Shown here: one piece after another, positions 9,980 to 57,793 of the stretch
Position numbering within the stretch: the first letter of the stretch is position 1
Layout of the letters: the number at the start of each line of letters is the position of its first letter
Source of the DNA: Desulfobacteraceae bacterium
GTDB taxonomy: Bacteria; Desulfobacterota; DSM-4660; Desulfatiglandales; Desulfatiglandaceae
Assembly: GCA_030613055.1 (NCBI GenBank)
Contig: JAUWMR010000021.1
Location: 1-64,000 of the forward strand
Length of the DNA: 64,000 bases
Direction of reading: 5' to 3'
Translations under genes and position numbers: made by a program
The notes under the pieces: model-generated
What the model was told of the DNA's origin: nothing
Databases searched by the model: none
What the model saw: only the letters and a program-made list of their open reading frames with translations

Positions 9980-10034
9980 GTAACACTTTAGCCCTTTGAA
10001 AACAGGACCGGGACATGGGGCTCTCTTTTTTAGG
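9980..10034 (+). mobile_element. Terminal fragment of the 0.33-kb inverted-repeat element
   Basis: This stretch between recA and alaS matches the left end of the element at 51288-51614. Its first 23 bases match the terminal inverted repeat at about 21 positions, and the similarity continues through ACCGGGACATGGGG and the following CTCTCTTTTTT. It stops at about 10034, so only one end remains. Confidence 0.75.
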
Positions 10035-50520: not shown

Positions 50521-50578
50521 CATGGTGGACGGGAAAGGTAAACAGGAAGAGAGAGATAACAAAGGCGAGGAGGACATG

Positions 50579-51238
50579 ATGGCAAAAATTGGTGTACTGC
50601 TTTCTGGCTGTGGTGTGTATGATGGATCTGAAATCCACGAGGCGGTATTGACACTTTTAGCGTTAGACAGGTCAGGGGCTGAAATCATCTGCATGGCGCC
50701 TGACATTGACCAATACCACGTTATAAACCACATCACCCAGGAGGTTGCTGAGGAGAAGAGAAATGTCCTTGTTGAATCCGCCCGCATTGCCCGGGGCGAA
50801 ATTAAGGACTTAAAGGACGTGAACGCATCGGACCTTGACGGCCTGATAATACCCGGCGGATTTGGAGCGGCCAAGAACCTGAGCGATTTTGCAGTGAAGG
50901 GCCCTGAGGCTGTCGTTTTCCCGGAGGTAAAGCGGCTTCTTAATGAGATGGTCGAATCAAAAAAACCCATAGGAGCTATATGTATTGCTCCTGCCACACT
51001 GACAAAAGCACTTTCGAACAAGAATCCCGAAGTCACAATCGGAAATGATCAGGCGACAGCCTCGGCTATCGAGGCCATGGGCGGGCGGCATAAGACCTGC
51101 ACGGTGGATATGATTCACTTTGATGACAGAAACAAAATCGTGACCACGCCCGCCTACATGCTTGGACCGGGCATAAAGGATGTTGCACTGGGTATCGAGA
51201 AACTGGTAGACAGGATTCTGGAACTGGCAGGCCAATGA
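50579..51238 (+). CDS. elbB: ElbB-like class I glutamine amidotransferase-fold protein
   Basis: 219 residues from ATG 50579, which AGGAGG precedes by 5 bp; longer in-frame starts exist. GVLLSGCGVYDGSEIHEAV, LDGLIIPGGFGAAKNLSDFA and GAICIAPATL (with the nucleophile-elbow cysteine) match ElbB/YhbL. E. coli ElbB is a weak glyoxalase of unclear purpose. Could be co-transcribed with panBE. Confidence 0.9.
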   Translation: MAKIGVLLSGCGVYDGSEIHEAVLTLLALDRSGAEIICMAPDIDQYHVINHITQEVAEEKRNVLVESARIARGEIKDLKDVNASDLDGLIIPGGFGAAKNLSDFAVKGPEAVVFPEVKRLLNEMVESKKPIGAICIAPATLTKALSNKNPEVTIGNDQATASAIEAMGGRHKTCTVDMIHFDDRNKIVTTPAYMLGPGIKDVALGIEKLVDRILELAGQ

Positions 51239-51287
51239 TTGATGATTTGTGGATCAAATGCTTTTTTCAAATCATCAATCTTCAATC

Positions 51288-51614
51288 GTAATAGTTTAGC
51301 GCTTTGAAAACAGTACCGGGACATGGGGATCTCTTTTTTATAAGCCACATCACAAATTCACCTAATGCTAACAACACGCCCCCCCACCGGGGCGTAGGCC
51401 CTATGGGCCGGAGGCTGGGCTTTGACCATGGGCTCGGAAAAGGCAGTGATGGCGGCCTTAATGATGAAGATTTCTACATGGGGCTGTCCGTTGCTTGAAT
51501 TTCAGGTCCTAACTGCCGTGCCATGTAATGATGTAAGCATATGCGGCTTATAAAAAAGAGACCCCCATGCCCCTATAATCCATGATCGATATTTTCAAAG
51601 CGCTAAACTGTTAC
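51288..51614 (+). mobile_element. 0.33-kb non-autonomous element with inverted ends and 8-bp target duplication, copy A
   Basis: The ends 51288-51310 and 51592-51614 are inverted copies with one mismatch (23 bp, GTAATAGTTTAGCGCTTTG...). The repeat extends inward through an ACATGGGG.../...CCCCCATG part and an AAAAAAGAG/CTCTTTTTT part. CTTCAATC stands directly on both sides (51280-51287 and 51615-51622), an 8-bp target duplication. The interior is GC-rich and palindromic around the ACACGCCCCCCCACCGGGGC segment. No transposase is encoded, so it must be moved by an enzyme elsewhere. Confidence 0.9.
51304..51498 (+). CDS. Conserved 64-codon open frame inside element copy A
   Basis: The frame begins MKTVPGHGDLFF and contains TPPHRGVGPMGRRLGFDH. 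Copy B (57777 to 57559, minus strand) keeps the same frame open with an 8-residue net insertion, and both end MGLSVA. It overlaps the left terminal repeat, so it may be an accidental frame kept by recent common descent of the two copies. No ribosome site or known domain. Confidence 0.2.
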   Translation: MKTVPGHGDLFFISHITNSPNANNTPPHRGVGPMGRRLGFDHGLGKGSDGGLNDEDFYMGLSVA

Positions 51615-51638
51615 CTTCAATCAAAAATCGTCAATTGA

Positions 51639-53024
51639 TCAGGGGAATATTTTACCAGGATTCAGGATTCCCTTCGGATCAAACAAATTCTTGATCTTTT
51701 TCATCCATACCAGGCTTTTCCCGTGCTCGGCTTCCATGAATTTTCGTTTTCCAATACCAACGCCATGCTCGCCCGTGGCCGTTCCGCCCATTGCAAGGGC
51801 CTTTGATACAATACGTTCATTGACCTCATCTATGATGCGCCATTCTTTATCATCTCCGGTTTTTCCCATAAACAACAGGTGCAGGTTGCCGTCCCCTGCG
51901 TGACTGAAGGTATATCCCGGTATTCCTGATCTTTCGGCTTCCTGTCTGGCCATGGATATAATTTCGGGATAGCCGGAAATAGGAACGGCCGCGTCAATAA
52001 CGATGTGGGAACGACCCGGGTGATTTCGTTTTATCATTTCCGCTAACTCATGCCGGGCCTTTAGAAGATCATCCCGCTCCTTTCTTCCGATACCTGACCT
52101 GAATTCCAGACAGCCCGCAGCGCCACAAATACCGTTGACCATCTCCATGACTTCTTCCAGCTGTTTCCTGGTGGCTCCGTGAAATTCCATAATGATCGAG
52201 GGTGAAACCTTAAGACCCAAATTCTTTTCTTTGTTGATGATCGTTATACATTCAGGAGCCAGTAGTTCCAGTGACGCCGGATCAAGGCCAGACCTGATGA
52301 TTTCAAATACCGCATTGCCGGCGGCCTCCACGCTGGAAAAATTTGCTATAGCCGCGGAAAACTCCTCGGAAAGCCCCCTCAAGCGAACCGTTGCTTCCAC
52401 AACTATCCCGAGTGTTCCCTCTGACCCGACAAATAGATTGATCAGATCATACCCTGAAGAGGTCTTTGAAGAGCGTGTTCCTGTCTCTATTATCTCACCA
52501 CTTGCCAGGACAACGCATATTCTGAGTAGATTGGCCCTGGTAGAGCCGTAGCGGACGGTCCTTGTTCCGCTTGCATTATTTGCGATCATTCCGCCAATGG
52601 TGGCACGGGCTCCGGGATCAGGAGGGAAAAAAAGGCCTTTATGCCGCAACTTTTCATTGAGATCCTGGTATACGACGCCCGGTTCTACATCTGCCTGAAA
52701 ATCCGCCTCCCTGATATTAATGATCCGGTTCATCAGCTCAAAATCAAGTACTACTCCCTTGCATACCGGGATTGGATTGCCTTCCAGGCTTGTCCCTGAA
52801 CCCCATCCCGTGATTGGAATAAGATTCAGGTTCGCGTATTTTAGTATCTCAGATACCTCGGTCCTGCTAACAGGCCAGATTACTGCCTCCGGCCGTATGG
52901 AAGGATGCTGGGATTGATCTTTCGCATGAAGTTCAAGGTTTGATTCCCCGGTTGAAAACCGTTCAGGCCCCACTATGGCTTCAAGGTCTTGAATATGTCT
53001 TTTCGTCAGGCTGTTGTAATTCAT
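51639..53024 (-). CDS. FAD-linked oxidase, GlcD/D-lactate dehydrogenase type
   Basis: 461 residues. The PCMH-type FAD domain has PITGWGSGTSLEGNP and PGARATIGGMIANNASGTRTVRYGS; the C-terminal cap ends with GEHGVGIGKRKFM and PKGILNPGKIF. Members oxidise D-2-hydroxy acids such as glycolate or D-lactate. No iron-sulfur partner (GlcF type) is adjacent. It is separated from element copy A by only 24 bp. Confidence 0.9.
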   Translation of the reverse strand: MNYNSLTKRHIQDLEAIVGPERFSTGESNLELHAKDQSQHPSIRPEAVIWPVSRTEVSEILKYANLNLIPITGWGSGTSLEGNPIPVCKGVVLDFELMNRIINIREADFQADVEPGVVYQDLNEKLRHKGLFFPPDPGARATIGGMIANNASGTRTVRYGSTRANLLRICVVLASGEIIETGTRSSKTSSGYDLINLFVGSEGTLGIVVEATVRLRGLSEEFSAAIANFSSVEAAGNAVFEIIRSGLDPASLELLAPECITIINKEKNLGLKVSPSIIMEFHGATRKQLEEVMEMVNGICGAAGCLEFRSGIGRKERDDLLKARHELAEMIKRNHPGRSHIVIDAAVPISGYPEIISMARQEAERSGIPGYTFSHAGDGNLHLLFMGKTGDDKEWRIIDEVNERIVSKALAMGGTATGEHGVGIGKRKFMEAEHGKSLVWMKKIKNLFDPKGILNPGKIFP

Positions 53025-57442: not shown

Positions 57443-57793
57443 GTAACAGTTTATTTTTTTGAAAAAATCGATCATGGATAATAGGGGCGTGGGGATCTTT
57501 TTTTTAAAAGCCGCATATGCTTACATCATTACATGGCACGGCAGTTAGGACCTGAAATTCAAGCAACGGACAGCCCCATACGGGAATCTTCATCATTAAG
57601 ACCGCCATCCCTGCCTGCCAGCCGGACGGCAGGCAATCCTTTTCCGAGCCAATGGTCAAAGCCCAGCCTCCGGCCCATAGGGCCTACGCCCCGGTGGGGG
57701 GGCGTGTTGCTGGCATTAGGTGAATTTGTGATGCGGCTTTTAAAAAAGAGACCCCCATGTCCCGGTACTGCTTTCAAAGAGCTAAACTATTAC
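57443..57793 (-). mobile_element. 0.35-kb non-autonomous element, copy B, inside the mre/mrd cluster
   Basis: Inverted relative to copy A. Outer ends GTAACAGTTTA (57443) and TAAACTATTAC (to 57793) are complementary. CAAATTCT (57435-57442) and CAAAGTCT (57794-57801) flank it, a target duplication with one mismatch. It carries an insertion of about 25 bp, itself a palindrome (TGCCTGCC...GGCAGGCA near 57614-57637). Its minus-strand frame (57777-57559, start MKAVPGHGGLFF) is the counterpart of the frame in copy A. The element separates mreD from mrdA. Confidence 0.88.

What the first reader, a model, noticed from the sequence alone, without database searches (positions are those of the whole stretch)
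51280..51622. Complete small mobile element with inverted ends and an exact 8-bp target duplication
A 327-bp unit has 23-bp terminal inverted repeats (one mismatch) and is bordered by CTTCAATC on both sides. It encodes no transposase. This is direct evidence of a non-autonomous transposable element, and its 8-bp duplication points to a DDE transposase family that makes 8-bp duplications (for example IS1595, IS6 or ISL3 type). I cannot match it to a named element.
Basis: seen in the sequence. Interest (0 to 1): 0.72.

Follow-up and report, generated by a model that had tools for sequence, protein, structure and literature searches.

The report
IS66-type miniature transposon, 40-plus copies
The 327-bp unit is a real "miniature" transposon, one of at least 43 complete copies in this bacterium; its ends match full-size IS66-family jumping genes in other bacteria that carry their transposase next to a DruA-family protein, so its probable engine, missing from the host assembly itself, is identified.

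Summary
In detail: a 327-bp element (51288-51614), 23-bp terminal inverted repeats (TIRs) with one mismatch, an exact 8-bp duplication CTTCAATC, no transposase. It is a MITE: I find 43 complete copies in the genome (294-391 bp and 68-107 bp), 12 with exact 8-bp duplications (0.02 expected) and 25 with at most one mismatch (0.29 expected). The family guess (IS1595, IS6, ISL3) is not supported. A 2364-bp element in a bacterium of the same order has the same ends (0 and 1 mismatches to the MITE consensus) around an overlapping gene pair: a DruA (DUF4338)-family protein and an IS66 transposase. Relatives in Desulfobacteraceae, Planctomycetota and Proteobacteria have the same layout and cognate ends, two with exact 8-bp duplications. 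The host assembly holds no IS66 transposase or DruA, so its copies look orphaned (or the helper is unassembled). The 327-bp form is the 295-bp form plus a 32-bp hairpin repeat dispersed separately across the order. As a MITE it is a new member of a known kind; of wider interest is the recurrent pairing of DruA-like proteins, otherwise known from anti-phage Druantia, with IS66 transposases (17 of 30 DruA loci examined), DruA being apparently replaced by an adenine methyltransferase in one element.

The parts
51280..51287 (.). target-site duplication, left copy (CTTCAATC)
   Evidence: 8-bp duplications in other copies
51288..51310 (+). left terminal inverted repeat GTAATAGTTTAGCGCTTTGAAAA
51288..51350 (+). 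left arm (TIR plus inner inverted repeat)
   Evidence: self-match of query 1-63 with 254-327
51351..51540 (.). core, non-coding; lies in the opposite orientation relative to the arms in 6 of 24 long copies
51383..51414 (+). 32-bp G+C-rich hairpin repeat nested in the core (limits ambiguous by a few bases); absent from the 295-bp copies, dispersed elsewhere in the order
51541..51614 (-). right arm
51592..51614 (-). right terminal inverted repeat (GTAACAGTTTAGCGCTTTGAAAA on the - strand)
51615..51622 (.). target-site duplication, right copy (CTTCAATC)
57443..57793 (-). second complete copy in the window (351 bp, 86% identical; flanks CAAATTCT / CAAAGTCT)
9980..10002 (+). further TIR with CAGGACCGGGAC arm start; end of a degraded or partial copy

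Best explanation
A MITE mobilised in trans by an IS66-family DDE transposase, most likely of the lineage whose insertion sequences encode a DruA-family (DUF4338) protein upstream of the transposase. Steps: the transposase recognises the 23-bp ends GTAAYANTTTAGCNCTTTGAAAA, which the MITE shares with the full-size element; it joins them to staggered target DNA; host repair leaves an 8-bp duplication. Shown: the ends, the duplications, the copy number, and that intact IS66 elements with the same ends exist in the same order. Inferred: that this transposase moved these copies. The host assembly has no IS66 transposase, so the family is probably orphaned there; the 68-107-bp forms are probably internal-deletion derivatives.
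For: Copies and duplications. Partner: G048 (JAFDDT010000038.1), 2364 bp, ends GTAACAGTTTAGCTCTTTGAAAA and GTAACACTTTAGCTCTTTGAAAA, DruA ORF (PF14236, 6.8e-36) overlapping an IS66 transposase ORF (PF03050 1.9e-37; NF033517 1.6e-72). Relatives: Planctomycetota L115 with exact duplication AAAGAGTC, L119 with TCTCGCAA, Desulfobacteraceae L116 with identical left end, and 13 contigs of MAG CROMO_BS_46_3 (L128-L135, L137-L141) ending in the transposase with this right end. A more distant IS66 element in the host's own family (G003) ends in GTAACAGTTTAG with exact duplication GTCAGTCC. Literature: ISDge4 (IS66, ISBst12 group) has ends GTGACTACTCAGCA/GTAACTGCTCAGCA and an 8-bp repeat (PMC12898284); IS66 elements ISPpa5a and ISPpa7 are listed with 8-bp repeats (PMC3281130).
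Against: No IS66 transposase or DruA gene in the host assembly; the assembly is 95.6% complete in 97 contigs and several contigs end inside copies, so a helper may be unassembled. The G048 element itself lacks a target duplication. Beyond the TIR the MITE shares no sequence with the full-size elements, so descent from the IS by deletion is not shown. A DUF6788-type IS66 element (G083) has a left end only two mismatches off, so the exact helper sub-lineage is less certain than the family.
Confidence: 0.85

Rival explanations
1. MITE of an IS1595, IS6 or ISL3-type transposase.
For: Those families also make 8-bp duplications (own knowledge).
Against: Full-length elements with the same ends encode IS66; the only trace of IS6 is 20 bits against a cut-off of 125. 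Transposases of these families were not searched for in the host genome.
Confidence: 0.03
2. The helper is a DUF6788-type IS66 element (ISBst12-like, no DruA) rather than the DruA type.
For: G083 carries such an element with left end GTAACAGTTTAGCTCTTTGACCA, two mismatches from the MITE consensus; G003, in the host's family, has one with an exact 8-bp duplication.
Against: The last bases (ACCA against AAAA) fit worse; the G003 ends have 6 and 8 mismatches; DruA-type ends of G048 match with 0 and 1.
Confidence: 0.12
3. A dispersed structured RNA or RNA-level hairpin (riboregulator, terminator) kept by selection.
For: The strand folds into one long hairpin, z = -9.9.
Against: Inverted arms give this by construction. 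Within-copy arm differences (mean 4.0) are no smaller than between-copy ones (3.6), so arms do not co-vary; no Rfam family at its cut-off; precise 8-bp duplications point to transposition; the core occurs in both orientations.
Confidence: 0.03
4. REP/BIME-type palindromic repeat moved by a RAYT (Y1 transposase).
For: Short palindromic units, mostly between genes.
Against: Precise 8-bp duplications and ends shared with a DDE-type element; RAYT elements make no such duplications (own knowledge). Only the nested 32-bp hairpin resembles a REP.
Confidence: 0.01

Closest known systems
IS66 family, ISBst12 group (ISDge4 of Deinococcus geothermalis, PMC12898284)
   Same: Ends beginning GTAAC (GTAACTGCTCAGCA), 8-bp direct repeat, a transposase of about 450 aa (449; here 456)
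   Different: Here the full-size partner carries a DruA-family gene before the transposase, and the window element carries no gene
Bacterial MITEs such as MITEPsy1 (100 bp, P. syringae, PMC3189936)
   Same: Small, geneless, multi-copy, TIRs matching a full-size IS, target duplication
   Different: MITEPsy1 makes a 4-bp duplication and is tied to ISPsy2; here 8 bp and IS66; here no helper is seen in the host
Druantia DruA (DUF4338, PF14236); called a GNAT-like acetyltransferase domain in PMC10853773
   Same: The partner element's first protein matches PF14236 strongly
   Different: It lies in an IS between TIRs with a transposase, not in a defence operon; PADLOC models do not match it
REP-like palindromes
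   Same: The nested 32-bp hairpin is short, palindromic and dispersed in 38 of 85 genomes of the order (host included)
   Different: It is only a passenger in some MITE copies; its own mobility was not studied

Membership tests
MITE (miniature inverted-repeat transposable element) | short, no transposase gene | tested here: met
   327 bp; no transposase ORF
MITE (miniature inverted-repeat transposable element) | terminal inverted repeats shared among copies | tested here: met
MITE (miniature inverted-repeat transposable element) | multiple copies with distinct target duplications | tested here: met
   43 complete copies; 12 exact and 13 one-mismatch 8-bp duplications
MITE (miniature inverted-repeat transposable element) | ends shared with an autonomous element | tested here: met
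   G048 0 and 1 mismatches of 23 to the MITE consensus
MITE (miniature inverted-repeat transposable element) | movement by that element's transposase | not testable with these tools
   needs a transposition assay
IS66 family (the proposed full-size partner) | IS66 DDE transposase | tested here: met
   PF03050 129.7 bits, NF033517 244.7 bits, both over cut-off
IS66 family (the proposed full-size partner) | ends beginning GTAA and 8-bp duplication | tested here: met
   L115 AAAGAGTC with GTAA ends; L084 GTCAGTCC with GTAA ends; L119 TCTCGCAA but with GTGTC ends; G048 itself has GTAA ends but lacks a duplication
IS66 family (the proposed full-size partner) | accessory genes tnpA/tnpB of the three-gene IS66 type | tested here: not met
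   a DruA-family ORF stands there instead; single-ORF ISBst12 members exist (PMC12898284), so this feature does not define the whole family
IS1595 / IS6 / ISL3 | transposase of that family between the same ends | tested here: not met
   the elements found with these ends encode IS66; IS6 model only 20 bits of 125
Structured RNA gene | known family or co-variation of arms | tested here: not met
REP/RAYT repeat | no target duplication | tested here: not met

The most novel reading that the evidence does not exclude
The MITE belongs to a transposon lineage in which a GNAT-like DruA protein (or, in one element, an N6-adenine methyltransferase in its place) is a functional partner of the IS66 transposase, for example by modifying DNA at the ends or target; DruA of the Druantia defence system would then be one domesticated branch of a transposon accessory family.
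Probability: 0.25. Interest if true: 0.68.

Novelty: new member of a known kind. Interest (0 to 1): 0.42.

Why it matters
It turns an unnamed repeat into a family with a likely engine: more than 40 apparently orphan copies of an IS66-type MITE in one genome, and the same ends in 21 of 61 genomes searched (host included). IS66 transposition is described in the literature as insufficiently characterised (PMC12898284); 68-71-bp natural elements with intact 8-bp duplications are near-minimal substrates for testing it. The recurrent pairing of DruA-like proteins with IS66 transposases gives a lead on what the DruA family, known from Druantia, originally did.

Tried and rejected
Long-range TIR pairs in the host genome (C66, 4.2 kb; C71, 1.25 kb) as full-size elements: ordinary host genes lie between, so these are separate remnants. 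The 948-bp pair in G046 (L072): no transposase ORF, another non-autonomous form that shares a piece of the core. Short pairs ending at an internal ATCATTAC/GTAATGAT site: judged spurious and dropped from the count. Core as RNA: no Rfam family at its cut-off. Plasmid and phage collections: no match. A hand-written pair count failed on length and was not repeated because answers the question. The class search returned the same 85 genomes as the order search. A scan of viral contigs for DruA relatives gave three loci that were not pursued.

Full report
1. Observation. The sequence at 51280-51622 is as described: CTTCAATC, a 327-bp unit with 23-bp terminal inverted repeats differing at one position, CTTCAATC. 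The arms remain complementary well beyond 23 bp (63 against 74 bp). It sits between two convergent genes (ORFs 50522-51238 + and 51639-53024 -), 49 bp after one stop codon and, leaving out one duplication copy, 16 bp from the other.

2. Copies. BLASTN over the host assembly (4.26 Mb, 97 contigs) gives 92 matching pieces, including complete copies of about 72-93% identity. The TIR pattern is found 107 times with up to three mismatches and never when read backwards. I fetched the places and paired the ends: after removal of spurious internal pairs, 43 complete elements, 18 of 68-107 bp and 25 of 294-391 bp. Twelve have an exact 8-bp duplication against 0.02 expected from re-pairing flanks of different copies; 25 have at most one mismatch against 0.29; no exact repeat is 4-7 bp long. 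Duplicated sites are 78% A+T. By a crude ORF test 35 of 43 lie between genes. The window holds a second complete copy (57443-57793) and a lone end (9980-10002). For the window copy the closest other full-length copy is 93% identical, and many duplications have decayed: this is not a very recent burst (inference).

3. The engine. Searching 61 genomes for the TIR (21 positive, host included, 17 of 40 genera) showed one facing pair 2364 bp apart in G048, a genome of the same order (contig JAFDDT010000038.1, a Deltaproteobacteria MAG). Between the ends lie two overlapping ORFs: a 292-aa protein of Pfam DruA (PF14236, 6.8e-36; also a sub-threshold match to Mom, 9.4e-4) and an IS66 transposase of about 456 aa (PF03050, zf-IS66, NF033517). 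A scan of 84,980 genomes found 31 loci encoding relatives. Their ends follow the transposase: 0-3 mismatches to the MITE consensus in the near clade (G048, Planctomycetota L115, Desulfobacteraceae L116, CROMO_BS_46_3 L128/L129, Syntrophaceae L142, L122, and G059) and 7-8 in the more distant proteobacterial ones (L118, L119). L115 and L119 have exact 8-bp duplications, AAAGAGTC and TCTCGCAA; G048 has none. A divergent IS66 element with a DUF6788-like gene in the host's own family (G003) also ends in GTAACAGTTTAG with duplication GTCAGTCC. The published ISDge4 (IS66, ISBst12 group) has GTAAC-type ends and an 8-bp repeat (PMC12898284). I therefore assign the MITE to IS66 with high confidence and to the DruA-type sub-lineage with moderate confidence.

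4. The host has no such engine in its assembly: PF03050 absent (control genomes rang), the partner transposase absent, DruA absent by profile (where no control rang) and by alignment (where other genomes rang). Because several contigs end inside copies (L010, L014, L028), an unassembled helper cannot be excluded.

5. Anatomy of the copies. The 295-bp form is a pair of palindromic arms around a non-coding core. The 327-bp form, that of the window, is the 295-bp form plus 32 bp, CCCACCGGGGCGTAGGCCCTATGGGCCGGAGG, at a fixed place in the core. Hairpins of this kind, without the MITE, occur in 38 of 85 genomes of the order (host included), often many times, so the MITE seems to have picked up another repeat and copied it along. 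Further short inserts account for other lengths. In 6 of 24 long copies the core is inverted relative to the arms, as expected if recombination between the inner inverted repeats flips it (inference). The 68-107-bp forms keep both ends with little between, several with exact duplications; whether these short elements were themselves inserted or arose by deletion after insertion is not resolved.

6. Alternatives. An RNA gene is disfavoured: no Rfam family at its cut-off, no co-variation of arms, core in both orientations. The strong hairpin (z = -9.9) follows from the inverted arms. IS1595, IS6 and ISL3 are disfavoured because the full-size elements found with these ends carry IS66 transposases.

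7. Wider point. A profile of the DruA-like proteins matched 54 of 395 genomes of the phylum. In 17 of the 30 loci fetched an IS66-type ORF stands beside the DruA ORF (the profile match is weak, 1e-8 to 1e-14, in four of them, one of which, L174, Pfam confirms). Two longer proteins carry DruA fused to other transposase domains: DDE_5 (PF13546) in L193 and Tnp_DNA_bind (PF14706) in L191. In L118 the place of DruA is taken by a protein with a weak but above-cut-off D12 N6-adenine methyltransferase match, supported by type II methyltransferase models (3.8e-23). DUF4338 has been called a GNAT domain (PMC10853773). Full-text searches found three papers that name DUF4338 and none that also names IS66; subscription literature was not searchable, so I make no claim of priority. 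A DNA-modifying partner of the IS66 transposase is a reasonable but untested hypothesis.

8. Verdict. Observation confirmed, transposon reading confirmed, family corrected from IS1595/IS6/ISL3 to IS66. New member of a known kind, with an interesting side lead.

Noticed in passing
51383-51414; related loci L146-L163: A 32-bp G+C-rich hairpin repeat (CCCACCGGGGCGTAGGCCCTATGGGCCGGAGG) nested in the MITE has relatives, without the MITE, dispersed in 38 of 85 genomes of the order (host included): a possible REP-like element of its own.
   Followed up: partly
L011, L022, L026, L027, L029, L042 (host genome copies): The MITE core is inverted relative to its arms in 6 of 24 long copies, suggesting recombination between the inner inverted repeats.
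   Followed up: partly
L071:736-2971, L114-L122, L167-L189: DruA (DUF4338)-family genes sit next to IS66 transposase genes in 17 of 30 DruA loci of the phylum; other DruA proteins are fused to DDE_5 or Tnp_DNA_bind transposase domains.
   Followed up: partly
L118:2743-3498: In one IS66 element the DruA gene is apparently replaced by a D12-type N6-adenine DNA methyltransferase gene.
   Followed up: partly
host copies L015, L020, L022, L023, L025; L006, L012, L017, L025, L066: Other short G+C-rich inserts (CCCCGATAGCGGGATCTACGCTACGCTCCGAA; GCCTGCCGTCCGGCTGGCAGGCAG-like) explain further length differences among MITE copies.
   Followed up: no
L072 (G046:C129:475-1422): A 948-bp non-autonomous element with the same ends and a shared piece of the core in another family of the order.
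   Followed up: no
L128-L135, L137-L141 (MAG CROMO_BS_46_3): Thirteen contigs end in the 3' part of a DruA-clade IS66 transposase with this right TIR and different flanks: a high-copy full-size IS in one genome.
   Followed up: no
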